Positions 3,362-27,959 of a DNA stretch of 64,000 nt are shown piece by piece. Source of the DNA: Nitrosococcus watsonii C-113 (GTDB lineage Bacteria > Pseudomonadota > Gammaproteobacteria > Nitrosococcales > Nitrosococcaceae); assembly GCF_000143085.1 (NCBI RefSeq), contig NC_014315.1, positions 2,634,001-2,698,000 on the forward strand. Reading direction: 5' to 3'. The notes beneath the pieces were generated by a model that did no database searches, was not told the DNA's origin, and saw nothing but the letters and a program-made list of their open reading frames with translations. The translations under genes were made by a program, and so were the position numbers. Within the stretch, counting starts at the first letter, position 1; each line of letters opens with the position of its first letter.

Positions 3362-5227
3362 TTGGGCACACCTCAGCACCCTGTCCCTTTCGGAGGACGC
3401 GAAGAAGACCTGGCGCGCCTTGACGCCTGGCTTGAGGAGCCCAACCACCCTCCCTATCGGTTGTTAGCAGCCCCGGCGGGTCGGGGCAAGTCGGCCCTAC
3501 TGGCGCGCTGGAGCCGACGGCTCTTGGAGCGGGAGGACCTAGCGGTAGCGTTCTTTCCGGTCAGTATCCGCTTCGGTACCAACTTGGCTCGGGTGGTCTT
3601 TACCACCCTGGCGGCACGTTTAGCGAAATTCCACGGTAAACCTTTACCCGCCAAGGCCGATCCCAAATCAGAGGATTGGCAGGGGCTAGTGGCAGATTAT
3701 CTTGCCCAACCGTTGCCCGGTGAACGCCGGCTGCTGGTCATCCTGGACGGCCTGGACGAAGCCGCGGGCTGGGAGGCCGGTCCCCACCTGTTTCCCTTCA
3801 ACCTACCCGCCACGACCCGCATGGTCGTCTCCGCCCGTTATGTGGCCGGAGATAAGGACCCCAGTGGTTGGCAGCGTCGCCTGAATTGGGACACCCCCGG
3901 CCGAGCGGAGACCATGACGCTGGAGGCGCTGACGCCCTTGGGTGTGGCCGACGTGCTCACGCAGATGGCCTTCCCCCTGGACCGGTTAGGCGCTAATGTT
4001 GATATTGTGGCTGAGCTGTATCGCCTGAGTGCAGGTGACCCGCTGCTGGTGAAGCTGTATGTGGACGATCTTTGGGCGCAGGGCGAGGAGGTTACCCGCC
4101 TCCGCCCCGAGGACCTACGCGGCATCCGGCCGGGTTTGGAGGGTTTCTTTAAAAAGTGGTGGGACGATCAACGCCAACTGTGGGAAGAGCGAGATCCATT
4201 CGAAAGACCCGTCGTTGAGGAATTGTTCAATCTCTTGTCCTGTGCTCTTGGCCCGCTGAATCATGAGGATATGTTTTGTCTAGCTTCTTCCTCTACAGTT
4301 CGCCTGACCACAAGGACTTTGGATGGTGCTCTAAAACCCCTCAAGCGTTTTATCATGGGTGATGGGCGCAGCCAAGGCTATGTCTTTAGCCATCCTCGGC
4401 TAGGTATTCACTTTTATGAGCAACTCAGCAAACCCGAATGTGAAAAGTTAGAAACGCGGTTCCTCTCTTGGGGAGAGGAGACGCTAAAAGCCTTGAACCA
4501 GAAGCGGTTCGAACCGAAAGCGGTATCGCCTTACGTGGTGCAATATTATGGAGCTCACCTGGAGCGAGCCAACCAAGGGGTCGATGCCTTTCTGCCCCTG
4601 GTCAGCGATGGTTGGCGGCAAGCCTGGCTTCATCGAGAAGGTGCCTATGGGGGATTTCTGAGTGATGTACAGAGAGTCTGGCGAAAAGCAGTTCAGGTCA
4701 ATTCGCAGCGGGTTGCAGGAAACCAGCCAGCGCCTTACCTGGGTCTTGAAATCCGCTGCGCTCTCTGCCAAGCCAGCATCAATAGCCTCGCCGGCAATAT
4801 TCCATCCAATTTGCTGCTTTCGTTGGTACAACATGAAATTTGGAGCCCTGCACAGGGATTAGCCTATGTCCGCCAAGTTCCTGATAAGCAGGAAAGAGTT
4901 TCGGCATTTAGACAGTTAGTTCCCCATCTACGGGCTGAAGAGCGGGAAGAGGTGCTGGGCGAGGCGCTGGCCGCCGCGCGGGCTATTGAGGAGGAGGGGG
5001 TTCGTGCCCAGGTGCTAAGGGTGTTAATAAACAAACTGGTAAGTTTGTCTTGCGCTTTTCTTTATCCGCTTTGGCAAAACACACTTCCGGTTCTGGCGTC
5101 TCAAAGACGATCTGACTTCCTGAATGACATCCGCACACTCACTCCTCTGATTGCTAAAATAGGTGGACAAAAGGCGGTAGAGGAGACCTTTCGTGCCATC
5201 AGGAATGTGATGCGGTGGTGGCCGTAA
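3362..5227 (+). CDS. STAND/NACHT-like ATPase with C-terminal helical repeats
   Basis: TTG 3362 is the first usual start codon, giving 621 residues, but the frame is open and protein-like back to 3191 (57 codons with no ATG, GTG or TTG), so the real product is probably a -1 frameshift fusion with the ORF at 2736. Counted from 3362, Walker A APAGRGKS is at residues 37-44 and Walker B LLVILDGLDE at 124-133, both of NACHT/STAND type. A winged-helix-like region follows, then a C-terminal area with helical-repeat character (EREEVLGEALAAARAIEEEG, RAQVLRVLINKL) ending in the motif NVMRWWP. STAND ATPases act as signal-sensing switches and many serve in phage defence. Neither an effector nor a target is recognisable here. 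Confidence 0.85.
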   Translation: MGTPQHPVPFGGREEDLARLDAWLEEPNHPPYRLLAAPAGRGKSALLARWSRRLLEREDLAVAFFPVSIRFGTNLARVVFTTLAARLAKFHGKPLPAKADPKSEDWQGLVADYLAQPLPGERRLLVILDGLDEAAGWEAGPHLFPFNLPATTRMVVSARYVAGDKDPSGWQRRLNWDTPGRAETMTLEALTPLGVADVLTQMAFPLDRLGANVDIVAELYRLSAGDPLLVKLYVDDLWAQGEEVTRLRPEDLRGIRPGLEGFFKKWWDDQRQLWEERDPFERPVVEELFNLLSCALGPLNHEDMFCLASSSTVRLTTRTLDGALKPLKRFIMGDGRSQGYVFSHPRLGIHFYEQLSKPECEKLETRFLSWGEETLKALNQKRFEPKAVSPYVVQYYGAHLERANQGVDAFLPLVSDGWRQAWLHREGAYGGFLSDVQRVWRKAVQVNSQRVAGNQPAPYLGLEIRCALCQASINSLAGNIPSNLLLSLVQHEIWSPAQGLAYVRQVPDKQERVSAFRQLVPHLRAEEREEVLGEALAAARAIEEEGVRAQVLRVLINKLVSLSCAFLYPLWQNTLPVLASQRRSDFLNDIRTLTPLIAKIGGQKAVEETFRAIRNVMRWWP

Positions 5228-7549: not shown

Positions 7550-7590
7550 AGATTTTAAGACACCATTATCCTTGTCCCTAGGGAGTTGTG

Positions 7591-9141
7591 ATGACTTTTT
7601 CTGCTTACCCCTCGGCCCACTCCGCGACCTGCTTTGACAGAGAGGACCGGCGGCCCAATCCCCCACCCCCTAAGACTCCGATGGCGGCAAGCGTCGAAGT
7701 CTCGGTACAGAGCTTTGCCGCGCTCTTTGAGAACGCCACCCTGCCCCTAGCGATCGACAGTTATCAGCGACCTTTTGTCTGGGAGACGAATAAGATCGCA
7801 CAGTTGGTCACCGATTTGCGGGACTACAGCCGGGAGCGTCAGGAGAACCCCTCTCTGGAGTATTATATGGGCACGGTGCTGCTGCACAGAAACCCGGAGA
7901 AGGGCCGGCTTTTCGTAATTGATGGTCAGCAGCGTCTCACCGCGTTGTCGGTACTGCATCATGTTCTGAGGGGAGAGTTACCCCCCCATCATGCGCTCCG
8001 CTATGGATCCTCTCAGTCGGTCACCCATATTCAACGGGCCCAGGCCTATTTGGCCGGCGCGGATGTAAATGCCCTGGTCCGTAATGTGTTCGAGCGGATC
8101 TGTTTCACCGTGATCGTGGTGGCATCAGAAGATCTGGCCTTTACCTTCTTCGATACCCAAAACCATCGAGGAGTCCCCTTAAATGCCACCGATCTCTTGA
8201 AAGCCTATCACCTCCGGGCCATTCCAGGAGACCGCAGCTGTACCGAGCACTTGCAAGAGGACTGTGCTGAGCGCTGGGAGCGCTTGCAGCGGACTCCGCC
8301 GATCCTTGGCCATGGAGCCGATTTTGCCCCGACCCTGTTCCATGAGTTTCTGTGGCGGGCGCGGCGTTGGACCGGGCAGAAACTGATTGCCCACGACACC
8401 TATGAGGATATCCTCCAGGAGTTTCAAGAGGATACCCTCTCCCCCGAGACGCCGGAGCAGGTCCCCCTCTATCCTACACGCCACAACTGCCTGGGTGTGG
8501 CGCTCGCGGTAACGCCCCAGAGGGAGCTTCGCTTGTTGCCCCACCCTTTGGCGTTCACGGCTCATCCTGCAGAACTGCCCTTTGCGCTTCGTCAGCCGAT
8601 CAGCAAAGGCCTGGGTTTTTTCCTCTATGCCGACAAATATACCCGCATGCTGACGCAGCTACTCAAGGAAGAGGATCACCCGGCGGAGGTGAAAGCCTTC
8701 AGGAAGATGTATAAAGCAGTGCTCGCTCACCTATCGCTGTACCTGCGCGAGCTGTTCCTGCTGGCCAGTGTGATGTATGTGGATCAATTTGGGTATCGCC
8801 AATTGCTGCATTTTGCCCTGTGGCTCGAGCATGTATTGGGGGCCATCCGGTTTGAAAAGCACGCGATTTTTGCCCAAGCGCCCCTGATTTACCTGCGAGA
8901 CAACCCCCTGAACCTGCTGGATGTAATCGCCAGCGCCTTTCGGCCCGAGCAAGTGATCGATTATCTCAAGGCGGATCCAGCAAAGAGCTATGAGCAGCGT
9001 GAGGAGGAAGACATCAAGCCGGGAGAGGGCGTGCAGGGGCGCTACAAAGAACGGGTGCTGGAATATTACGGCAGGCAGGGCAGCCTGAAAGGCAAAGCGA
9101 CATGGATCACCGAAGACTTTATCCGGGAGCAGTTGTCATGA
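7591..9141 (+). CDS. DUF262 domain protein (GmrS-like), first gene of a pair
   Basis: ATG 7591 follows GGGAG at 7581-7585, giving 516 residues; GTG 7588 is an alternative. Near residues 40-125 it has the DUF262 core: DSYQRPFVWETNKIAQLV and the signature FVIDGQQRLTALSVL. DUF262 (ParB/sulfiredoxin-like fold) is the NTP-hydrolysing module of GmrSD-type modification-dependent restriction enzymes and many related defence proteins. The rest is helical and no DUF1524/HNH motif is visible. Its stop overlaps the start of the next gene (ATGA), which does carry the HNH domain, so the two products probably work together. Confidence 0.88.
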   Translation: MTFSAYPSAHSATCFDREDRRPNPPPPKTPMAASVEVSVQSFAALFENATLPLAIDSYQRPFVWETNKIAQLVTDLRDYSRERQENPSLEYYMGTVLLHRNPEKGRLFVIDGQQRLTALSVLHHVLRGELPPHHALRYGSSQSVTHIQRAQAYLAGADVNALVRNVFERICFTVIVVASEDLAFTFFDTQNHRGVPLNATDLLKAYHLRAIPGDRSCTEHLQEDCAERWERLQRTPPILGHGADFAPTLFHEFLWRARRWTGQKLIAHDTYEDILQEFQEDTLSPETPEQVPLYPTRHNCLGVALAVTPQRELRLLPHPLAFTAHPAELPFALRQPISKGLGFFLYADKYTRMLTQLLKEEDHPAEVKAFRKMYKAVLAHLSLYLRELFLLASVMYVDQFGYRQLLHFALWLEHVLGAIRFEKHAIFAQAPLIYLRDNPLNLLDVIASAFRPEQVIDYLKADPAKSYEQREEEDIKPGEGVQGRYKERVLEYYGRQGSLKGKATWITEDFIREQLS

Positions 9142-11129
9142 CCCTCCATTCTCGCTTGCTGACCCTGCAGGACATTGACGAGCACCTTTACTTTTTTACG
9201 GTGCCCCTCTATCAGCGCCTCTATGTGTGGGGCAAGGATCAGATAGACACCCTACTGGAGGATGTGCTGGCGGCTTACCAGCAGGGAGAAGAGATGCTCT
9301 ATCTGGGCACGACCCTCGTGGTGGAGCGGGAGAGCAACGAAAACGGCACCACCTTTGACCTCATCGATGGACAGCAGCGCTTGACCACTCTATGGATGAT
9401 GAGCCTGGTGTGGCGGGAGCAGGAGGCGATGCAGCGGTTTTTGTACCACCAGGACAGTTCTAAAGGCCCTGCCAAACGGCCCCGCCTCACTTTTGCCATT
9501 CGACAAGACATTAACACCTTCTTTGCCGAGCGCATCGAGGGCAAGGAGAGCAGGTGTGTCGGCAGTCCCCCCATCGAGGATGCGCTCGCCACCCTCGAGT
9601 CCTTTGTCGAGGCGCGAGAGCCAGGGCTCGATCTCCCTCGTTTCACTCGGTTTCTGTTTGAGAAGGTGAAACTGGTGCTCACTCAGGTCCCGCCCCACAC
9701 GGATCTCAACAAGCTATTCGAGGTGATCAATCACCGGGGCCTTCAATTACAGCACCACCAGATTCTCAAGGCTCGCCTGTTGAGGCAACTATCTGATACC
9801 ACGGAGCGGCAACGCTATGCCTTGCTCTGGGAGGCCTGTGCGGATATGAGCCGCTATGTGGAGAAAAACCTCAAGGACCTCACCCGGGGCAGTACCCAGG
9901 ATAACACTCCCTTTAAGATTTCCGACCTCTATGAGGATAAGGCGGGGGCCGAGGGCCGGGAAGACTTGGCCAGCGCCGAGAAAGTCCTCGAGGCACTCGC
10001 CGGCCCACAGGCCACCGCAGAAGAGGACGAGCCGTTGAGTTTGGCTGCCATCCTTAAAGGCGCCACGGGGTCGCGCCAAGATAAGGACAGTACCCCGCCG
10101 GCCGTGGATAATGAACACTATGAATCGGATGAGGTGCGCAGCATCATCAGTTTTCCCCTGCTGCTCCAGCATACCTTGAGAATTTGGCTTCAGCGCCAAG
10201 GTAAGGCCGATTTACCGAGGATTTTGGATAAAGATCTGCTAAGGTTGTTTGACGCCTATTTCCTGCAAGAGGGCGCCTCGGGAGCCCGGGTCAAGTCGTT
10301 TATCGAGCTGCTCTGGGAGATTCGTTACTGCCTTGATAAGCATGTGATCAAATGGGTGAACATCGGCGAGGAGGAACGACATCTCATTTACAGGCTACGG
10401 AAAAGCTGCAGCTTGGTGCGAGATCAGCCCGAGAGGAATGAGGGCTTTGCCCTGCTGCAAAGCATGCTCTACCATTCCCAGCAAATTACTACCCATTATT
10501 GGCTGACGCCGCTGCTGGCGTGGCTCCATCGTTACCCGGGCAAACCGTCGCAGCATTATGCTTATTTACGCCATCTGGACAACCATCTGCTTTGCGCCGC
10601 CGATGAGCGTTCCCTGATTGAGCGCACCCGGGACTTTCTGGACAATCCCTGGCACCGCAATCCCCTGGATTGCCATCTTTTAGAAGAAAACCTGGGCACT
10701 CATTTTCCCCATTATTGGTTCTACAAAATGGAGTTTGTGCTGTGGTATCTGAAATCTCCCCAGATGAAGGAGAAAGATCCCAGGCGGGATAACTTCCGCA
10801 TGACGGCGAAGAATTCGGTGGAACATATCTCGCCCCAGACCGCCCATGAGGCGGATTTCAACACAGTATCCGAGGAGGTATTGGACACCTTTGGCAATCT
10901 GGCACTGGTCTCACGAAGCATAAACTCGGAATATGGCAACAAGCCCTTCAACGAGAAGCGTCTGCAATTTCTAAATAGAAACAGGGACCGGCTCGATTCC
11001 TTGAAAATGGCGCTGATTTATGAAAATACTGAATGGAACGATGGGCTTGCAAAAGCCCATCAAAGTGAGATGATGGCGCTGATGGAGAGTTATCTCGCGT
11101 TCGATCACCGAGGTCAAGCGGGTGCCTGA
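9138..11129 (+). CDS. DUF262-DUF1524 (GmrSD-like) nuclease, second gene of a pair
   Basis: ATG 9138 overlaps the stop of the upstream gene and is preceded by GGGAGC, giving 663 residues; the longer in-frame start at 9102 lies inside that gene and is rejected. The N-terminus carries DUF262 (VPLYQRLYVWGKDQIDTLL; FDLIDGQQRLTTLWMM near residues 75-90). The C-terminus carries a DUF1524 His-Me-type nuclease region: NSVEHISPQTAHEADF, then FGNLALVSRSINSEYGNKPF. This domain order is that of single-chain GmrSD enzymes, which cut modified (glucosylated or hydroxymethylated) phage DNA. The tandem of a nuclease-less and a nuclease-bearing DUF262 protein suggests a two-subunit restriction system; substrate unknown. 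Confidence 0.9.
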   Translation: MTLHSRLLTLQDIDEHLYFFTVPLYQRLYVWGKDQIDTLLEDVLAAYQQGEEMLYLGTTLVVERESNENGTTFDLIDGQQRLTTLWMMSLVWREQEAMQRFLYHQDSSKGPAKRPRLTFAIRQDINTFFAERIEGKESRCVGSPPIEDALATLESFVEAREPGLDLPRFTRFLFEKVKLVLTQVPPHTDLNKLFEVINHRGLQLQHHQILKARLLRQLSDTTERQRYALLWEACADMSRYVEKNLKDLTRGSTQDNTPFKISDLYEDKAGAEGREDLASAEKVLEALAGPQATAEEDEPLSLAAILKGATGSRQDKDSTPPAVDNEHYESDEVRSIISFPLLLQHTLRIWLQRQGKADLPRILDKDLLRLFDAYFLQEGASGARVKSFIELLWEIRYCLDKHVIKWVNIGEEERHLIYRLRKSCSLVRDQPERNEGFALLQSMLYHSQQITTHYWLTPLLAWLHRYPGKPSQHYAYLRHLDNHLLCAADERSLIERTRDFLDNPWHRNPLDCHLLEENLGTHFPHYWFYKMEFVLWYLKSPQMKEKDPRRDNFRMTAKNSVEHISPQTAHEADFNTVSEEVLDTFGNLALVSRSINSEYGNKPFNEKRLQFLNRNRDRLDSLKMALIYENTEWNDGLAKAHQSEMMALMESYLAFDHRGQAGA

Positions 11130-14310: not shown

Positions 14311-15795
14311 ATGCCCCAAGAATCATCTTTCCCCATGACAACTGTGGAACTGGTGGAGCATTTTAATCACAATAGCAAGTCGCCAAGAATTCATCTGCCG
14401 ATTATTCAGCGCGATGCAGTTTGGAAAACCGTACAGGTGTGTGAATTGTGGGACTCGCTTCTCTGTGGCATGCCTATTCCTTCGAGCATCTTGTGTGAAG
14501 TCACAACAGCGGGGACGAATAGTCTTTCCACCCGGGATTTAAGTGGACGTTATGACGAAAAGACTGAATTCATAAAAGCCGAATTTAAGGTTAAAAATGG
14601 AGACTACATGCTGCTTGATGGTCAGCAGCGTTGCAATGCCATTCGGTTGGGGTATGCAGGTTCGAAGACGGAACGGCTGTGGCTTGATCTAGGCTGGGAA
14701 AAAAACGAGCAACGCCGCTTCGGTTTTTTCCTTTGTTCTCTTGCGAGGCCATGGGGCGATAAGCCTGATTTGAGCGAGCGAGCAGCGGGAAGGACAGTAC
14801 GGGAGGCACGTCGATTACGCCACGAGTCAAATTATCCTCTAAATGGCCAGTTCGATTTTCAAATTCCCCTTTCCCACACCTGGCCTGTCTATGCCAAAGC
14901 ACCGATCCCCATTCTAGAACTGTTAAAGGAGGTGCTACCCTTTCCTTCAGGGGATTCGCAGACACAACAAATTTACTTGGAAAGTGCCGTTCAGCGCACG
15001 GTCAAGCAAACGCTGCTGCCGCCATCGATTCGGAAGAAAGTTCATGCGGTTCTGGAAAAGTGGCGACAGGACCAATGGATGGAACTGCTTGCCGGAATCC
15101 GGCAACTTGATCAACCGGTTATTAGTGCGGTAATCACCCAAATCGACAACGGAGATTTGTTGCGTGCCTTTCGGCGTTTGAATCAAAATGGAACCGATTT
15201 GAAGCCCGCAGAGCTTTTCTTTTCAGGTCTTAAAAACTGCTTACCCGAAAGCGCTAGTCAAGTACACCAACTACATACTGGAAAGCGGCAGGTTTTTTCT
15301 GAACTAGATACTCTACGTGCGCTGACTGTACTCTCAAGCGAAAAGCTGGTAGAACAAACCGAACTCAACTTTGATCTGCTCAAGGCATTGGGCCTCGACA
15401 GTAATTCTAAAAACCAAGAAAAATTTAAGAAATTCCAAAATAGAATTTTCAGTTACTTCGGAGGACATGCTGAACGCCTAATCAATAGATTATTAGCCCT
15501 TATCCAGCGAGGAGACACGGAAGGACTTCCGATTGTGATGCTTCCCCGGCTTCGTAGCCGTACCTGGTTGCCTGTGCTGTCCTGGCTCGATGTGCTTGAT
15601 CAAGCCGGGCACGATGCCGATGCGGAAAATCATCGAGAGGCCGTGCTGCGCTTTATGCTTACCGATCACTTTTTTTCTGAATGGCGCAAAGGAGAGAATG
15701 AACTACTGCGGGCAATGCTCCAGCTAGTAAAAAAAGGAGGTTCTTTTCCAAGCCTCAGAGAATTTGAAGAATTGCCTGAGGCCCAGCAGAATTAG
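14311..15795 (+). CDS. DUF262 domain protein, ends at a TAG directly before its HNH domain
   Basis: From ATG 14311 the frame gives 494 residues; ATG 14335 is possible. It has a variant DUF262 core: RIHLPIIQRDAVWKTVQVCE near residue 30 and GDYMLLDGQQRCNAIRLG near residue 105. A helical region including IDNGDLLRAFRRLNQNGTDL (the usual DUF262 N-G-T-P-L-like block) follows. The protein ends at TAG 15793-15795, but the same frame then stays open into an HNH domain to 16551. The natural product is therefore probably one DUF262-DUF1524 nuclease of about 746 residues, now split by a single amber codon. Confidence 0.85.
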   Translation: MPQESSFPMTTVELVEHFNHNSKSPRIHLPIIQRDAVWKTVQVCELWDSLLCGMPIPSSILCEVTTAGTNSLSTRDLSGRYDEKTEFIKAEFKVKNGDYMLLDGQQRCNAIRLGYAGSKTERLWLDLGWEKNEQRRFGFFLCSLARPWGDKPDLSERAAGRTVREARRLRHESNYPLNGQFDFQIPLSHTWPVYAKAPIPILELLKEVLPFPSGDSQTQQIYLESAVQRTVKQTLLPPSIRKKVHAVLEKWRQDQWMELLAGIRQLDQPVISAVITQIDNGDLLRAFRRLNQNGTDLKPAELFFSGLKNCLPESASQVHQLHTGKRQVFSELDTLRALTVLSSEKLVEQTELNFDLLKALGLDSNSKNQEKFKKFQNRIFSYFGGHAERLINRLLALIQRGDTEGLPIVMLPRLRSRTWLPVLSWLDVLDQAGHDADAENHREAVLRFMLTDHFFSEWRKGENELLRAMLQLVKKGGSFPSLREFEELPEAQQN

Positions 15796-20751: not shown

Positions 20752-21075
20752 CTAGGCCACTTTCCGGGCTTTGACTTCCAAGTGTATGCCCTCCTGCTCC
20801 TGCAGATAATGGATCACCGCAAACAGATTGCTCGCCTGAGGATTTCCTTTCGGCCCGAACATGCGCATGAAGCTCTTGCTCGACTTATCGAAGACCCGAG
20901 AGAGTTCTTCAAACCCGATCGTCGCGTTGATATAGTCGCGCAACACAGCCTTGCCGGTGATGTCGATACCGGCAAGCAGGCATTCGGCCCCTCCTTGCAG
21001 CAGGGCCTTACGAAAGGTAGAATCCCGCTGGGCACGTGCCCGTATAGTGTCCTTAAAATCTTTCGTCAAAGCCAT
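20752..21075 (-). CDS. HigA-like antitoxin / DNA-binding protein
   Basis: A 107-residue protein from ATG 21075, preceded by GAGGTG. It belongs to the putative addiction-module antidote family: TKDFKDTIRARAQRDSTFRK, then GKAVLRDYINATIGFEELSR and FDKSSKSFMRMFGPKGNPQA, a helix-turn-helix of the lambda-repressor type. The toxin gene immediately upstream overlaps it (TAATG) but is broken, so this antitoxin now stands alone. It may persist as a regulator or simply be decaying last. Confidence 0.85.
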   Translation of the reverse strand: MALTKDFKDTIRARAQRDSTFRKALLQGGAECLLAGIDITGKAVLRDYINATIGFEELSRVFDKSSKSFMRMFGPKGNPQASNLFAVIHYLQEQEGIHLEVKARKVA

Positions 21076-21396
21076 TATGTCACCTCTTTCCGTTTCCGGC
21101 GCTTATAGTCGCGCCAATGCCCTTTTGCGGCAGCAACGTCTGCGTCCTGGTGCTTCTTTGGTACCTCCCGCGAACAATATCACCAACCGATCCCCGTCCT
21201 TGCCGAAGTAGATCCGATAACCAGGGCTAAAATCAATCCGGTACTCATGGACGCCGGCGCCAACACCTTTCACATTAGAGAAGTTATCTTGCTCCACCCG
21301 ATAGGCCGCTGTGGTCGCCTTGACCGCAGCGGCTACATTCAGACGATCGAACTATTTCGTATAAGGACTGTTTTCCTCTGCATCTCCCGTGAGTTG
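21075..21396 (-). pseudogene. RelE/HigB-type toxin, broken
   Basis: The minus-strand frame reads ENSPYTK, TAG, FDRLNVAAAVKATTAAYRVE, then NFSNVKGVGAGVHEYRIDF and GYRIYFGKDGDRLVIL, the core of RelE/HigB toxins of the family found with this antitoxin. The TAG near 21352 stands where a tryptophan is expected. After GGTK a frameshift near 21160 separates the proper C-terminus (HWRDYKRRKRKEVT), which ends at TAA overlapping the antitoxin start. Two independent lesions make it a pseudogene. Confidence 0.78.
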
Positions 21397-21639
21397 TTAC
21401 GGGGCATAGTGCGAGAATTAGGTACGAGGGACGATGGGAAATCTATTCGGTGGGTGGGGTGATTCTTAAAATTTTATGCGCATTTATCTGTCAGCAGAAT
21501 AACTACCGTTCCCTATTATCAAATTTTCAACTAGGAAGAAGAAAACGATTCTTCAGGTGAGTATGTTTAGTGAATTGAACTGAATAGACTTACTTAACAA
21601 GTAGTTAGATTTAGATTGACTCAGCAGACCAAATTACAG

Positions 21640-24600
21640 CTATGACTCCTGTGTCCAACGTGCGTCGTCATCATGACTCCGAGCTTGGTATTCAAATGAC
21701 TTTGCGATATCTTCCATCATCGCCGAAAGATTCGGCTTCTCGTCACGCCAAGTGGCGGCAAATATTTTAAACTTATTAGCAATTTCGCGTTCCTGATTTC
21801 CGCCATCATAAGGATTCCGTGAGCTAACACCTTTACTATTCTGCACCCCTATACTGAATTCTTGCCTGATGTCCTCACAGTCATCTTGATCTAACAGCTC
21901 TGCAATAACTTTATCAGGCCAAAACTCCAGGTTCTTATTACACGGCCAGTCGGAGAACCAAGTGCCTATTGTTGAGTCCGTTGCGGCTAACCTGTCTTTT
22001 TCATTTGCCAGCTCACGAACTTTCTTGATCCATTCAAAAAATATCACAGAATCAATTTTTCCATTGGAGGCTCTTCCCGGGATTCCGCGCCCATTGTAGA
22101 GCAAAGAACCAGCAGTCTGGGCTGCGCCTTGCATGCTTTCCGGTATCGGTTCAGATTCAGAATTCCGTGGTTTATATACCAAGCATATCAGTTCAATAAA
22201 GGACTCTGGCGAATTAAAAATTTCCGCGAACAAATTTGGAGTTCCATATTCTTCCCTATGCAAGATTTCATAGTAGCCGAATTCAAGGCTAGCCAATTCA
22301 GATTGGGATAACTGTCCTGCTTGGGAAAGTGCTGTAAACAGTCGGGAGATATTCCATGGCTGTGGAAGTGGTGCATCTGGCTCTTTACCCGCGCCAAGAT
22401 CTTTCAGCATTTGCATCAATAACGAACTGGGCACTTCAGCCGCCCGATGACCCAAAGCCTCAAACGCAGTTCTTGGCCTATTCACCGCCAGCAACTTTTC
22501 AATGCAAAATATCAGATCATCACCTTCTGCTCGAACGTAGTATGGTCGAACAATCTTCCAGAATTGCTCGCGAATCTCTGGCGCTTGTTCCTCGATGAGG
22601 CACCATACCCACATTCTTTGGGGAGCATTGGACATCAACCCCGCAATTGCGGCTGATTGAGCATTTCTTCGCTCTAGGTCAGCGATGACTAACACCAAAA
22701 ATTCGTGGCATTCCGTTTCTGTTACAGCGTGCAGCACACCGGACGTCAAAGAGTCCAACGAGTACTCGGCTAAATTCAAATAGCGACGACATAACCACTC
22801 CACTAATTCTTTCCAATCAAATGGATCGCTGACCAGTTCCCAGCCGATAAGTCTTGGATCGCCACTTCGATTAACAAGCTGATTGATACCTTGCCAACCT
22901 TGTAGATTAAAAATCTCCCGAACTGCGGTAGCGCGTAGATCTTCCCTAGCTCGATTGATCTCCTCGTAGTCATCCTCTCGCCCATCTGGCAAATCAACCC
23001 AGCCATTAGAAAAAAGCCATGCGTGGCGTATCACTAAATCGTCAGCGGCAAGAGAATCAAAAGCTGGCCTCAAAGCGTCAGCAGCGTAGCGATCATGCTT
23101 TTCCCCGGACGGATTGAAGGAATTTTCCCAACGGAGATATTTCCTGACTGCTGATCGTACCTGCTCTTTGTCCTCGTCCTCAAACTCCGTCGAGGCATTG
23201 ACCAGACCTATGACCGCGTCACGGAATTCGATGCCCAGGCGGTCGATCATCGGGACGAGTTCAGCTATGCGTGCGGCGTTTCCTCTCGACTGATCAACTA
23301 ATAGACTCGCAATTTCTAGGACGAAATGACGATACTCACCATGCGTGACGCCCCCTTCGGCTCCTGCATCATCCTCACGCCAACGGGGTTTTGCATTTGG
23401 TGACGCAAAATCATGATGGTTGGGCGCTAGTGCCAAGAGTAAGCGCCAGCCGATTTGCGGATATTGGTCAACGATATTCCGAACCACATGGATTCGATGA
23501 TCAACTGTTGCGGCAGTCTGTGGTAACCATGGACGAAAGAGTGAAATTAACGAATTGAAAGGTGTATTACCCCAGTTACCTTTCACTTCCGTTTCAGATA
23601 GTTTGGCCAAAATTTCAGCGACCTTCATTAGACGCCGTGGATACCAAGCCAGCATCTCAAGCGACCAGAGCAGGTTAGCATACCAGCAACGACTAAAGAC
23701 ACCCGGTGACTGGGTTTCCGTGATTAGCCTAGTCACCGGTCTCCCAGCGATATTCAAGCTTTCCTGAATCGTGGATAAATATTCATCTGGTGCGGCTTCC
23801 GCAAATGATCTGAGGTACTGAGAGACGGATAACCAACGGTCTTCGCTAGCATTCGTCAACAATTGTCTGATCAACGCTCTAACCTCTCGCCCTACCTCGC
23901 TGGCATTCGGATTGGCATCTGCAAAATAGCCCAGCTTTGCGATGGAATCTGCCATGGCATCTAAAACGACGCCGGAATGCTCACGGACTTTTCCATAAAT
24001 AGTTGCCATCCAGCGTTTATCATCTTCTAACTCCAAAACAGGGTCTGGCTCTTCGAAAACTGCCCTTGCTACTTGGAAAAATCTCGACAGAACTGCTCCC
24101 GTCAGTTTTGGACCTACTAAATTCAGTAGTTCCAGAGGCGCCTTGGCCTTCCAGAGATTTCCTATTTTCAATACAGGGGCATCATCAAGTGATACAAGCT
24201 GCAAAAGTTCGTCCTCAATTTCTTCATAGGGCCTGTTAGCAACCTGTTCTATACAAGCCTTATCACCTTGCGATTCACCGCTCCATGCTCCAACCAATGT
24301 TAGGATGCGGAGACTGGTAGCATTAGGCCCATCTATCCATTCGGGTTTTCTCACGGCAGGATTCAACGCGTTCATACGACGAAAGACTGTCCACGATCTT
24401 CCAAGAGTCCCGGTATATCGAGCTGCATCCGAAGGCGCGACATCAAGCTCCAATAATGCCTGTTCAAACTCGTCAGGCTTGGGCCGACTCATCTCGATGA
24501 CCTTCTGATCGGCTACTTTTGCGGCCGAGCCCATGAGGTTGAAAGCCGCATCTCCAACCGCTAGAGGAATGATCAAGCTCATTCCCTCGCGCGGAGCACG

Positions 24601-25401
24601 GTTAGCTGCAAGCTGATTATCGGCAACGATGACTAGTTCCACACCGGGATTAGCATCGACATACTGCCATCCCTCCATCGATGTCACACAAACAGCCCGT
24701 TGAGAATAATCACTTTCAATCAATTGGCTACCTGCGAATCCAACAGCTTCTGACTGACTATCAGCCATCACGGCAACCAAGGGCTCACGCTGATTGGTAC
24801 GCCTTAACAACTCATCGCGCGCTTTTTCGCGCCCTACCAGCAAAGCTGTTGAAGTCAAGATGGGGTTGGACTGCTTATGCCAGTGATCCCAATAGGTTTC
24901 TATTGAAACGATTCCAGATCCCGCGATACCAATTTGAGATGCCATCCATAGGGAGGTGGTTGCCGATGTTTCCAGCCAAGCTTCTAGGTCGTCAGCGTCC
25001 CACACTAAAACATCAGCCCAGACGTTCTGATTTCGTGCCTTTTTTTGCCATTTCCCCTTTTCACGCCACCGCCTAGAGGTAACAAAAACATAAGTTGTTT
25101 GTGCTGCATGCTCGGCAGATAGCTCGGTTACCCGCTTCTGAAAATCGCTTGTTGCTTTTTTGGCGGGATTGGTAGAAGTGCCAAGCTCCCAGTAACTGGC
25201 TCCATCCGGCACCCAGGCATTACCGGATTCCACGTTCAATATTCCATCACATCCGGGTTCGCCCACGGACTCACCACCAGGCATAGCGATAGATTTAATC
25301 TGGGCAGTGGCCTTGATCAATCTTCGCACCAGGATAGGGAGCATTCCCTGTGCTACCCGCTGATCTGACCAATTGACAAGGTGTGTGGCAGTGATCCGCA
25401 T
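21640..25401 (-). CDS. Very large protein with nuclease-like N-terminus and helical repeats, probable defence protein
   Basis: A 1253-residue intact frame. Residues 1-170 resemble a PD-(D/E)XK-type nuclease domain: GCDGILNVESG, WVPDGASYWELGTSTNPAKK, TTYVFVTSRRW, WADVLVWDADDLEAWLE; the D, E and K pattern fits a restriction-like active site. Residues about 180-300 look like a STAND NTPase region with a degenerate P-loop (TALLVGREKARDEL; VAVMADSQSEAVGFAGSQ has no GK[ST]). The rest is helical and repeat-like, as in sensor domains. It starts on the stop codon of a frameshifted exonuclease (TAATG), so both once formed an operon. A role in phage defence is inferred from architecture and neighbourhood. 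Confidence 0.8.
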   Translation of the reverse strand: MRITATHLVNWSDQRVAQGMLPILVRRLIKATAQIKSIAMPGGESVGEPGCDGILNVESGNAWVPDGASYWELGTSTNPAKKATSDFQKRVTELSAEHAAQTTYVFVTSRRWREKGKWQKKARNQNVWADVLVWDADDLEAWLETSATTSLWMASQIGIAGSGIVSIETYWDHWHKQSNPILTSTALLVGREKARDELLRRTNQREPLVAVMADSQSEAVGFAGSQLIESDYSQRAVCVTSMEGWQYVDANPGVELVIVADNQLAANRAPREGMSLIIPLAVGDAAFNLMGSAAKVADQKVIEMSRPKPDEFEQALLELDVAPSDAARYTGTLGRSWTVFRRMNALNPAVRKPEWIDGPNATSLRILTLVGAWSGESQGDKACIEQVANRPYEEIEDELLQLVSLDDAPVLKIGNLWKAKAPLELLNLVGPKLTGAVLSRFFQVARAVFEEPDPVLELEDDKRWMATIYGKVREHSGVVLDAMADSIAKLGYFADANPNASEVGREVRALIRQLLTNASEDRWLSVSQYLRSFAEAAPDEYLSTIQESLNIAGRPVTRLITETQSPGVFSRCWYANLLWSLEMLAWYPRRLMKVAEILAKLSETEVKGNWGNTPFNSLISLFRPWLPQTAATVDHRIHVVRNIVDQYPQIGWRLLLALAPNHHDFASPNAKPRWREDDAGAEGGVTHGEYRHFVLEIASLLVDQSRGNAARIAELVPMIDRLGIEFRDAVIGLVNASTEFEDEDKEQVRSAVRKYLRWENSFNPSGEKHDRYAADALRPAFDSLAADDLVIRHAWLFSNGWVDLPDGREDDYEEINRAREDLRATAVREIFNLQGWQGINQLVNRSGDPRLIGWELVSDPFDWKELVEWLCRRYLNLAEYSLDSLTSGVLHAVTETECHEFLVLVIADLERRNAQSAAIAGLMSNAPQRMWVWCLIEEQAPEIREQFWKIVRPYYVRAEGDDLIFCIEKLLAVNRPRTAFEALGHRAAEVPSSLLMQMLKDLGAGKEPDAPLPQPWNISRLFTALSQAGQLSQSELASLEFGYYEILHREEYGTPNLFAEIFNSPESFIELICLVYKPRNSESEPIPESMQGAAQTAGSLLYNGRGIPGRASNGKIDSVIFFEWIKKVRELANEKDRLAATDSTIGTWFSDWPCNKNLEFWPDKVIAELLDQDDCEDIRQEFSIGVQNSKGVSSRNPYDGGNQEREIANKFKIFAATWRDEKPNLSAMMEDIAKSFEYQARSHDDDARWTQES

Positions 25402-26061
25402 TAAATAAGTTTATCCTCGATTAAGTTGTCACATGTGGCTGTTTTAGGTGCCGGAGAGTGTAATGTGATGCGTAATCCGTTCCCACTACGCCTTATCACT
25501 TCAACTACCTTCGCAGTCTGCTGGCTATCAATCTCCGCCCCATGAATTCTACCCTCTTTGCCCCGGAGATCTTCAACGCCCAACACTTTCGTCAACGTAC
25601 CTAACGACGGACCTCTGTGGCCGCACTGGAGATTCATGGCCTGCGCCCAGGGAATTGCAGCTTTCTGACTACAAAATACACCTTTGATAGACGGCATGTT
25701 TAGATGGTATCGCACAACATGATCAAGCAGGATGGGCCAGTCAAAACTGGCGTTGTGAATGACGATGAGTTGATCTTTCAGGTAGTCGGCAATCTGGTGC
25801 CGCCGGGAATCAAACGATTCAAACCTGGCAGCCTGTATGTTAGTAATACCGTGTATTGATTGCGCTTCTTCTGAAATGCGTCTTTAGCAGTCGCGTTTCA
25901 AACTCTACGGATTCTGAAATCTCCCGATTTTTAACCACTGTTAGCCCTAAAATGACGATATCAGGCAGGCCGTTTTCCTCAGGGAGTCCGGTGGTTTCCA
26001 TATCGAGGACGATGTAATCGTCTGGGAGTTGGGTGAATATCCACAGCAGTTCGTTATACAT
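25401..26061 (-). pseudogene. DnaQ-like DEDDh 3'-5' exonuclease with one frameshift
   Basis: ATG 26061 has GAGGG eight bases upstream. The first frame gives Exo I (DDYIVLDMETTGLPEENG, with D and E) and runs to KTHF. From about 25880 a second frame carries RISEEAQSIHGITN, Exo II (LIVIHNASFDWPILLDH) and Exo III (GRIHGAEIDSQQTAKVVEVI, with H and D), ending at TAA 25401. All four catalytic acidic residues and the histidine are present, so only one indel near 25875-25885 breaks the gene. It overlaps the start of the 1253-residue gene by one base. A sequencing error cannot be excluded. Confidence 0.8.
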
Positions 26062-26762
26062 TGCCATTACCCTCTGCCACTGCCATCCAGGGATTCAACG
26101 CGAACGATCATCCCCTGGTCATAGAGTGGTAGCGCAGATAATGCCAGTGAATGGCATCCGAAAGCGCCTTGGGACGCATCACCCCATAACACTCCCCTTT
26201 CGCTCTCACGCTGCGATAGTGAACGCCGTAACTTTTGGCATGTCGTAACGCATAACCAAGCTTCTAGGCTTCACCGTAGTCATCGGGATGGTAAATAGCA
26301 TGTCCGTCCAGGTGCCGCACGTCGGAGTTCTCCATGGATGGTGAACGACCCCCCAGCGAGAGTGCGAAGTAAAACTTTGCTGCGAGCGCGAGGGCCAGGT
26401 TACTTGCATTTTGCCATGAATTGGCGCTATAGCTTTCCCGTTGCCGCAAGCGCGACCTATCCTCGGGAGGAGGAGAAGTGGCGCGCGTGGAGGGTGATAC
26501 CAAACTGAGGGCCTTGCGCGCTAAGTCGTGGCCAGCCCGAGGCGCCCATTGAAGCGCGAATTCTCCAGGCTGATAAGATTTTGTAGGAACAAAATTGAAA
26601 TGAGTCATGGCGAAACTCCAAATGCAAGATGACAGGTCCCAGTTGTGCGCAGATAACGCGCATTTCCTAACTGGTCTTGTCGATTCTGGATTCTCGTAGG
26701 AATCGTGCCCGATGGAAGAATGATTCGGCGATGGCCACCGCCTCATTGGTGGCGCAGTAATA

Positions 26763-27624
26763 TAGTCATTCTAAATAACTTTGTGACATATAGGCTTTTC
26801 GATATTTTTACCGGAGAATTGCCTTCGTTTTTTGAGAAGGGCGAAGGAGTGCTCAATGGGATTAAAACCAGGGGAGTAAGAGGTGGCCTGCCTTCTCAAG
26901 GATATTGCGTATCTCTGATTGTTTGTGGAACCGCGCATTATCCATCACGATCACACTGGGCTTTTTCAGCTCTTTAAGCAAAAAACCCTTAATCCATGTA
27001 TTGACCCAAGCCGTGTTGCACGAGCCGTTAAAAACAACAGGCGCGAGCCATTCATCCCGGCGCTGGGCCCTCATCAGATTAACATCTTTTCGGTTACTGC
27101 CCGATACATCGCCCTATACTTTTGCCCACGCGGCGTCCAGCTATGCGGGCAATAGGCGTATTTCTCAAACCCGCTCTCATCAAAGTAAACGATGTTTTCT
27201 TGGCCGTGGCTTTTAAAAAAGCCGCGCAAGCGGGCAAGCTACGCAGCCCTTTGCCTCTTACTTCTCTGGGAATAGCTACGCGCTTTTTTTTACCATGCTC
27301 ATGGAACGAAGTGCGTACCAGATGGCGCTCGTGTGGATCCCAAAATGAACGGCTCGTTCACAAAGCTTTGCATCCGGGTGAGCTTGCACGTGGCGTTTCA
27401 AGGCAGACTTGTCCAGCTTGCGTTGAGGCGAACCCCGTGAACCTTCGGGCGAAGATCTTCGCTCCTGCGCCAACGGTAAATCGTATTGCAGGATAGGTTA
27501 AACAAGCCGTGCGCCTCTCTCTAGCTGCCGCCTTCTTCGATGAAGGTCACAACACGATGACGAAGGTCTAAGAAATACGTCATCTCAAAACTATAACATG
27601 ATCGATTCTTAATTCAAATGACTA
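26763..27624 (-). mobile_element. IS630-family insertion sequence in the RES gene
   Basis: The 862-bp element has inverted ends TAGTCATT and AATGACTA and is flanked by TA dinucleotides (26761-26762 and 27625-27626), the target duplication of IS630/Tc1-type elements. It lies inside the RES toxin gene, whose two halves match across the joint. Confidence 0.8.
26790..27583 (-). pseudogene. IS630 transposase, broken
   Basis: ATG 27583 begins MTYFLDLRHRVVTFIEEGGS and meets a TAG, then continues in other frames with RKLDKSALKRHVQAHPDAKL (helix-turn-helix region). Towards the 3' end it shows the DDE part with WINTWIKGF-like sequence and KPSVIVMDNARFHKQSEIRN (second catalytic D), then AGHLLLPW. At least one nonsense codon and two frameshifts are present. 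Confidence 0.75.
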
Positions 27625-27853
27625 TAGATGCCGAAATCCCGGTTGAAGCGACCGTCTCGACCATCCACCGGCGGGTGGGTGAAGGCCGCCATGATCCAGG
27701 ACGCACCATCGCCATAGACACGCTCTTCCAGCGGCACCAGGCGAATATCGCCGACTTTATCTCGCAACCTGGAGTTGGTCAAAAACTCCACGGCATAGAG
27801 CACGTCCCAATCCTATGGATTGGAGACGCGCTCGAGCAGGCTGATCTGGGGAT

Positions 27854-27897
27854 AGCGTGACAGAATGAGCCGATAGACCGGTTCATTCTGTCACGCT
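27854..27897. repeat. 15-bp perfect inverted repeat at the RES gene 5' end
   Basis: AGCGTGACAGAATGA (27854-27868) and TCATTCTGTCACGCT (27883-27897) are exact inverted arms with a 14-bp spacer. The repeat marks the joint where RES sequence changes to unrelated sequence. Confidence 0.75.
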
Positions 27898-27959
27898 GCT
27901 GGGCAAGGTATCGATAGCGATCACCGCCTCAGGCGACCCCTTGGTGCCACTGGTATCGA

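What the first reader, a model, noticed from the sequence alone, without database searches (positions are those of the whole stretch)
21640..26061. 1253-residue nuclease-like giant coupled to a DEDDh exonuclease
The giant has a PD-(D/E)XK-like N-terminus, a STAND-like region with a degenerate P-loop and about 900 residues of helical repeats. Its start codon overlaps the stop of a DnaQ-like exonuclease whose four acidic residues and histidine remain but which has one frameshift. An exonuclease plus giant nuclease-sensor operon is an uncommon pairing and may be an undescribed defence system, here perhaps in a damaged state.
Basis: partly seen in the sequence, partly recalled or inferred. Interest (0 to 1): 0.6.

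Follow-up and report, generated by a model that had tools for sequence, protein, structure and literature searches.

The report
Intact nuclease-sensor giant, bystander exonuclease
A large, intact protein that looks like a bacterial immune sensor fused to a DNA-cutting domain belongs to a widespread, unnamed family, but the exonuclease in front of it is a decayed leftover of a toxin-antitoxin module and not its partner.

Summary
The 1253-residue giant is intact and under selection. Its N-terminus has the strand order of a PD-(D/E)XK nuclease with D52, E72, K82 and D86 invariant in 46 of 46 sequences, though no solved nuclease was matched to that part. A STAND-like domain without P-loop (0 of 46) and about 830 residues of helical repeats follow; the best solved match is Avs4. 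The family is widespread (12 of 398 genomes of the phylum), is often fused to a helix-turn-helix, and has no curated name. The DEDDh exonuclease is genuine but broken, differently here and in the sister genome. It adjoins the giant in 2 of 32 records searched, both of this lineage. All four copies found follow a RES toxin gene; in the two with an intact Xre/ParS-RES-exonuclease module the next gene is another defence gene, Drt3 or an Avs4-like giant. Flank matches put our giant in the same slot of an integrative conjugative element (ICE), a hotspot type described in Pseudomonas islands. So: an Avs-like, probably NTP-independent defence nuclease of an uncharacterised family, in a decayed ICE cargo slot.

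The parts
21640..25401 (-). Giant, 1253 aa, intact: PD-(D/E)XK-like + P-loop-less STAND-like + helical repeats
24922..25401 (-). Residues 1-160: PD-(D/E)XK-like domain; alpha-beta-beta-beta-alpha-beta order; D52, E72, G74, K82, D86 invariant
   Evidence: model pLDDT 88.1; conservation 46/46 and 9/9 in a wider set. No solved nuclease matched to this part on its own
24358..24921 (-). Residues 161-348: STAND/AAA-like alpha-beta domain without P-loop (conserved ADSxxEA in its place)
   Evidence: Foldseek best hit of residues 1-420 is Avs4 8dgf; VIA Z about 10 to AAA/STAND ATPases, Avs5 9jap Z 9.7; 0/46 canonical P-loop
21640..24141 (-). Residues 421-1253: all-helical, HEAT/armadillo-like repeat region, inferred sensor
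   Evidence: model pLDDT 84.7, pTM 0.67; best matches karyopherins and other HEAT proteins, VIA Z at most 8.8
25404..25883 (-). DEDDh exonuclease remnant, 3' part (second frame; its stop codon 25401-25403 shares one base with the giant's ATG)
25840..26067 (-). DEDDh exonuclease remnant, 5' part (first frame, 75 aa)
26069..26324 (-). RES toxin gene remnant, 3' piece
   Evidence: blastn to the RES genes of L012, L203 and L166; RES PF08808 in L012 and L166
26325..26621 (.). Second insert inside the RES gene (about 297 bp, nature not determined)
   Evidence: gap between blastn pieces
26622..26762 (-). RES gene remnant, middle piece
26763..27623 (-). Insert inside the RES gene: IS element with DDE_3 transposase remnant (26862-27074)
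27624..27925 (-). RES gene remnant, 5' piece, with an in-frame stop; no match to the antitoxin gene upstream
21378..21469 (.). 92-bp remnant of the ICE right flank (89% identical to L203 10955-11046)

Best explanation
The giant is a stand-alone, Avs/NLR-like immune nuclease of an uncharacterised family. Inferred mechanism: the C-terminal helical-repeat superhelix recognises an invader component, a pseudo-STAND domain that has lost its P-loop holds the protein in an inactive or assembled state without using ATP, and the N-terminal PD-(D/E)XK-like domain cuts DNA once assembled. In many relatives an N-terminal helix-turn-helix, probably for autoregulation, is part of the same chain; in the window lineage it is absent. 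The exonuclease is not its partner. It is the third gene of an Xre/ParS antitoxin-RES toxin-DEDDh exonuclease module at the left side of an ICE cargo slot, and the giant, Drt3 and an Avs4-like giant are alternative cargos behind it. In the window this module is decayed (antitoxin lost, RES interrupted, exonuclease frameshifted) while the giant is kept by selection. Shown: coding integrity, selection, conservation, fold class of the middle and C-terminal parts, gene orders and flank matches. Inferred: nuclease activity, sensing, ligand, phage defence.
For: Fold: top Foldseek hits of residues 1-420 are Avs4 8dgf (E 2.8e-5) and, at rank 4, AVAST5 9nc9 (7.2e-4); VIA Z about 10 to AAA/STAND proteins including Dark, CED-4, plant NLRs and Avs5; helical repeats. 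Catalytic-type residues invariant, canonical P-loop absent. Selection on the giant. No exonuclease elsewhere. Module and cargo swap: L166 and L203 are collinear at 84% through the exonuclease and diverge at its 3' end; L203 matches window 25480-27925 on one side and 21378-21469 on the other; L203 10957-11824 matches L012 12896-13741 beyond the giant. Families: Xre/ParS, RES, RNase_T over Pfam cut-offs (L166); Drt3a/Drt3b, TraD (TIGR03754), TIGR03747, TIGR03745 (L203) and RAQPRD (L012) over NCBIfam cut-offs. Defence-type neighbours of other members (AbiEii, RES/Xre, SIR2, Abi, a Shedu-domain protein, restriction) in 7 of the 15 plasmid regions that carry annotation, of 18 fetched; no background rate was measured.
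Against: No member is known to me to be tested, and no curated defence profile covers the family: PD-Lambda-4_A matches only a 69-residue stretch at E 0.0027, and hhalign gives 2.7% probability. The nuclease fold of residues 1-160 rests on strand order and conservation; VIA rows barely cover it, and the usual lysine two residues after the glutamate is a glycine in 46 of 46. Foldseek TM-scores are low (about 0.3), and many ordinary AAA ATPases score as well as STAND proteins. The exonuclease fragments also show low dN/dS (0.034/0.120 and 0.032/0.075), so selection alone does not separate exonuclease from giant; the lesions do. The exonuclease subfamily is known from four copies in three genomes only.
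Confidence: 0.62

Rival explanations
1. One reading: the DEDDh exonuclease and the giant form a dedicated two-gene defence system, damaged here.
For: One-base overlap of stop and start (TAATG) in both genomes that carry the pair; both genes of nuclease type.
Against: RNase_T adjacent in 2 of 32 genomes or records with a family match, both of one lineage; 0 of 109 other loci by a second profile; the exonuclease has other downstream partners in its two intact copies; broken by different lesions in the two genomes while the giant stays intact.
Confidence: 0.06
2. The exonuclease, RES toxin and antitoxin are a guard or addiction leader that works with whatever defence gene occupies the slot behind it, the giant included: loss of the cargo system would free the toxin, or the exonuclease degrades DNA that the cargo nuclease has nicked.
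For: The same three-gene module before Drt3 and before an Avs4-like giant, and its remnant before this giant; overlapping start and stop codons inside the module.
Against: Three cargos in one bacterial order; the module may simply be a fixed resident of the ICE slot. In the giant's locus the exonuclease is dead in both genomes and the antitoxin missing, yet the giant persists.
Confidence: 0.15
3. The giant is mainly a regulator or antitoxin-like DNA-binding protein (many members are annotated as HTH regulators, one as HigA antitoxin) and not a defence nuclease.
For: HTH_3 or HTH_17 over the Pfam cut-off in 3 of 3 HTH-fused members tested; RefSeq names.
Against: The window protein and several others have no such extension; the conserved part is the nuclease-like and repeat region; the best Foldseek hit is Avs4.
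Confidence: 0.12
4. The split exonuclease is one functional protein made by programmed frameshifting, so the pair is not damaged.
For: Both genomes with the pair have two overlapping frames.
Against: The lesions lie at different places and have different sizes; intact single-frame copies of 208 and 199 aa exist; one copy also lost the conserved FD aspartate.
Confidence: 0.03

Closest known systems
Avs4 (AVAST type 4)
   Same: Nuclease-type N-terminus, STAND domain, long C-terminal repeat sensor (Avs4 anatomy partly recalled); best Foldseek hit of residues 1-420 (8dgf)
   Different: The family lacks the canonical P-loop (0/46), is shorter, is often HTH-fused; the window giant matches no Avs profile in NCBIfam or PADLOC, nor do 7 relatives in PADLOC
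PD-Lambda-4 (PADLOC PD-Lambda-4_A)
   Same: Similar size and order (restriction-type N-terminus by my reading, STAND, repeats); weak match to one conserved stretch of the repeats in the window giant and in 3 of 7 relatives
   Different: The profile-matching gene in L017 has a canonical GLSGVGKT P-loop and lies next to an M48 peptidase gene; a review table lists a P-loop NTPase domain for PD-lambda-4 (PMC10952713, one passage); hhalign probability 2.7%
RES/Xre (MbcA/ParS) toxin-antitoxin
   Same: The upstream module in L166 has PF20432/PF09722 and PF08808 over cut-off
   Different: Here it carries a third overlapping gene, a DEDDh exonuclease; in the window it is decayed
GI-Hotspot 8 (traD to RAQPRD) of Pseudomonas islands, PMC12629846 (passages seen)
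   Same: Same boundary genes in the copies compared here; variable defence cargo
   Different: Different bacteria; a RES-exonuclease leader sits inside the slot; the word 'exonuclease' does not occur in that paper's main text

Membership tests
Avs4 | Match to the curated Avs4 profile (NCBIfam NF041815 / PADLOC Avs4) | tested here: not met
   No hit for the giant at E<=1, while the cargo of the second G002 copy (L166) does hit
Avs4 | STAND NTPase with intact P-loop | tested here: not met
   0 of 46
Avs4 | Overall fold order nuclease-STAND-repeats | tested here: inconclusive
   STAND-like and repeat parts seen; nuclease part by strand order only
Avs4 | Recognises phage portal protein | not testable with these tools
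   Needs a phage assay
PD-Lambda-4 | Full-length match to PD-Lambda-4_A | tested here: not met
   69 residues at E 0.0027; hhalign 2.7%
PD-Lambda-4 | Second gene (an M48 peptidase gene lies beside the PADLOC-matching gene in L017; that it is component B is my inference) | tested here: inconclusive
   M48 in L017; the window giant's neighbour is the exonuclease remnant, but component B itself was not searched for
STAND superfamily | STAND/AAA-like fold | tested here: met
   VIA Z about 10 over 161-348, tied between AAA and STAND chains
STAND superfamily | Walker A motif | tested here: not met
PD-(D/E)XK nuclease | Core strand order with acidic residues and lysine | tested here: inconclusive
   Order and D52/E72/K82 present; no solved nuclease matched to residues 1-160; lysine is not at E+2
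DEDDh exonuclease | RNase_T profile with DxE, D, H and D motifs | tested here: met
   Intact copy PF00929 E 3.3e-16; residues present in the window fragments
RES/Xre toxin-antitoxin (window copy) | Intact antitoxin and toxin genes | tested here: not met
   Antitoxin region not matched by blastn, RES interrupted
ICE defence hotspot of traD-RAQPRD type | Both boundary genes present | tested here: not met
   Boundary genes seen in L203 (TraD) and L012 (RAQPRD); in the window only a 92-bp right-flank remnant was matched

The most novel reading that the evidence does not exclude
A widespread class of NLR-like bacterial immune nucleases that switch without a nucleotide: a P-loop-less STAND scaffold between a nuclease and a HEAT-like sensor, often self-regulated by a fused HTH and with exchangeable N-terminal effectors. 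Some travel as swappable cargo behind a fixed antitoxin-RES-exonuclease leader that stabilises the slot.
Probability: 0.3. Interest if true: 0.72.

Novelty: new variant of a known kind. Interest (0 to 1): 0.47.

Why it matters
If the giant is an active defence nuclease, a whole family (12 of 398 sampled genomes of the phylum) would sense phage through a STAND fold that cannot bind nucleotide by a P-loop. A paper seen here reports the Walker A motif essential in Avs5 (PMC12931631, passages). That makes the need for ATP in NLR-like switching directly testable. The cargo comparison also shows that an exonuclease next to a defence gene can be a resident of the slot and not a component, a trap for guilt-by-association searches.

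Tried and rejected
Exonuclease-giant system: rejected. Programmed frameshift: rejected. Membership of PD-Lambda-4: followed because; rejected; the original paper (PMC9519451; outline, one section and passages) does not spell out 'PD-lambda-4' in the text held. Curated family names for the giant: none for the window protein in Pfam, NCBIfam or solved structures; of 46 aligned N-terminal parts, three weak Pfam matches, one member each, best E 0.026, to three different families. Close relatives of the window protein in named genomes: none found by the search for related loci (viral contigs), which uses six short exact peptides. Exonuclease subfamily in viral contigs: none; in plasmids, 30-32% identity in the 20 of 317 records listed. 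Sequencing error at the frameshift cannot be excluded for this genome, but the RES insertions and the separate lesion in the sister genome do not depend on it. Mapping the 49-genome RNase_T output onto loci was not possible because contig numbers differ and the listing was cut; I did not use it for counts. Papers: no hit for RES, Xre, toxin-antitoxin, exonuclease and integrative conjugative element together (0 papers) or for STAND NTPase, Walker A, degenerate, anti-phage and nuclease together (0 papers); these are narrow word searches of one open library.

A domain-swap lead: two relatives (L054, L042) carry a different N-terminus and one (L011) lacks the nuclease region; Pfam names none of them, so it stays a lead.

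Full report
The observation. The window holds a 1253-codon gene at 21640-25401 on the minus strand whose ATG shares one base with the TAA of an upstream frame. Single fragments match RNase_T or exonuclease profiles weakly, and the locus is recognised by PF00929 in the genome search.

The giant is alive, the exonuclease is not. A same-genus genome (G002) has a giant of identical length, 89% identical. Between the two genes dN is 0.052 and dS 0.176. Random placement of the observed 281 substitutions gives on average 10.7 stops and 191 amino-acid changes (minimum 161); observed are 0 and 132, and 1 of 2000 simulations has no stop. The exonuclease is broken in both genomes but differently: a one-base frameshift here, a seven-base tandem duplication there plus loss of the conserved FD aspartate. 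Against my reading: the exonuclease pieces themselves still show low dN/dS (0.29 and 0.43 from the values), so the damage is recent.

Is the exonuclease a conserved neighbour? Of 32 genomes or plasmid records with a giant-family match, Pfam RNase_T lies next to it in 2, this genome and G002; the next closest on the same record is about 19 kb away, on a Rhizobium plasmid. Some of these genomes are drafts with the giant on a short contig. Independently, a DEDDh profile built from natural exonucleases (13 of 13 seeds recovered when left out) was run on 17520 frames from 110 fetched loci plus the window surroundings: hits only in the window and L012, that is, none in the other 109 loci. A recount shows 99 of the 110 with a near-full-length giant, 9 partial and 2 without; 87 of the 99 have at least 1 kb upstream and 82 at least 3 kb. 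Most of these loci (those) were selected with an alignment of HTH-fused members, so they sample that branch more heavily.

What the exonuclease belongs to. G002 has a second, intact copy of the exonuclease (L166 6475-7101, 208 aa). It is the third of three overlapping genes: an Xre/ParS antitoxin (PF20432, PF09722), a RES toxin (PF08808), then the exonuclease (PF00929), all over Pfam cut-offs. A third genome of the order, G020, has the same trio with an intact 199-aa exonuclease (trio read from the ORFs and the 84% collinearity). Within 63 genomes of the order, copies at 70% identity or more occur only in G000, G002 (two) and G020; the other matches are generic DnaQ-like at 34% or less. A sample of 398 genomes of the phylum adds none: apart from G000 the rows listed, best first and cut, reach 37% at most. 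All four copies follow a RES gene; in G002's giant locus the RES gene still reaches the Pfam cut-off, in the window it is cut by two inserts, one holding a DDE_3 transposase remnant, and has a stop. In both giant loci blastn finds no match to the antitoxin gene (ORFs).

Cargo swap. Behind the module in G020 come Drt3a and Drt3b, both over NCBIfam cut-offs; behind it in G002's second copy comes an Avs4-like giant (NCBIfam Avs4 E 1.6e-31, 108.5 bits against a cut-off of 1500) split by an IS3-type insertion ('IS3', and that the two pieces are one gene, are my reading of the ORFs). L166 and L203 are collinear at 84% up to the exonuclease end and then part. The left neighbours in L203 are TraD (TIGR03754) and TIGR03747, the right one TIGR03745; RAQPRD (TIGR01690) follows the giant in L012. 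blastn joins the picture: L203 matches window 25480-27925 on the module side and window 21378-21469 just beyond the giant, and L012 12896-13741 beyond its giant. The giant therefore sits where Drt3 sits in G020. Published work on Pseudomonas islands describes a variable hotspot bounded by traD and RAQPRD (GI-Hotspot 8, PMC12629846, passages read), which is this slot type.

The giant's family. tblastn finds 22 plasmid records, 17 with at least 80% coverage, at 24.6-29.2% identity in the 20 rows listed; 3 of 95 relatives, own genome included; 12 of 398 genomes of the phylum at E<=1e-20, own genome included; 75 loci in named genomes, two of them contigs already held, with titles from several proteobacterial classes to Saccharibacillus and Dyadobacter; and 5 viral contigs. 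Many members carry about 95 extra N-terminal residues with a helix-turn-helix (HTH_3 or HTH_17 over cut-off in 3 of 3 tested). Of the ten full-length members, four align from model position 3-5 (HTH region) and six, the window's among them, start at 45-74. The two closest relatives, G377 and G147, have neither this extension nor a neighbouring exonuclease. Seven of 15 annotated plasmid regions (18 fetched, 3 without annotation) show AbiEi/AbiEii, RES/Xre, SIR2, Abi, a Shedu-domain protein or restriction genes nearby; no background rate was measured. In the window itself three GmrSD-type restriction genes and a NACHT-like ATPase lie about 6 to 16 kb away.

Fold. Residues 1-420 model at pLDDT 88.1, pTM 0.81, with 46 sequences. 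The order helix 16-32, strands 34-39, 53-59, 67-74, helix 79-93, strand 102-108 is that of a PD-(D/E)XK core (recalled), with D52 and E72 at the expected strands and K82 in the following helix; D52, E72, G74, K82 and D86 are invariant in 46 of 46 and in 9 of 9 of a wider set. Foldseek's best hits are Avs4 8dgf (E 2.8e-5) and, at rank 4, AVAST5 9nc9, with TM about 0.3. VIA gives Z about 10 to many AAA ATPases and to STAND proteins (Dark 10.0, Avs5 9.7, RPP1 9.6, CED-4 9.5), all tied, over 161-348 or to 420; residues 1-155 are barely tested there. So the middle domain is AAA/STAND-like, not specifically Avs4. Residues 400-1253 model at pLDDT 84.7, pTM 0.67 as helical repeats; matches are generic HEAT proteins with Z below 9, which the tool warns is weak for helical folds.

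Conclusion. The finding is real but composed of two unrelated things: a living member of a widespread, uncharacterised, Avs-like and P-loop-less nuclease-sensor family, and the corpse of an ICE-resident antitoxin-RES-exonuclease module. The first deserves phage tests; the second explains the odd pairing.

Noticed in passing
window 7588-11129 and 14311-15795 (+): Three GmrSD_N proteins (type IV restriction family), two of them overlapping in tandem (7588-9141, 9102-11129): a second defence-type cluster in the window.
   Followed up: partly
window 3362-5227 (+): 621-aa protein with AAA_16/NACHT-like ATPase domain; may belong to the same defence cluster.
   Followed up: no
window 20752-21297 (-): HigB/HigA-like pair by my reading of the ORFs just beyond the giant's 3' end, also present in G002 (L012 14002-14622).
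   Followed up: no
L166 7241-13837: Avs4-like giant in G002 interrupted by an IS3-type element, behind an intact antitoxin-RES-exonuclease module.
   Followed up: partly
L203 5530-10719: Intact Xre/ParS-RES-exonuclease trio directly before a Drt3a/Drt3b pair inside ICE conjugation genes.
   Followed up: yes
L054 5128-8691, L042 8372-10792, L011 4890-7664: Relatives that keep the C-terminal repeats but have a different N-terminus, or lack the nuclease region: possible exchange of effector domains.
   Followed up: partly
L051 4068-11086: In Thalassospira xiamenensis a RES/Xre toxin-antitoxin pair lies on each side of the giant, a second link between RES modules and this family.
   Followed up: no
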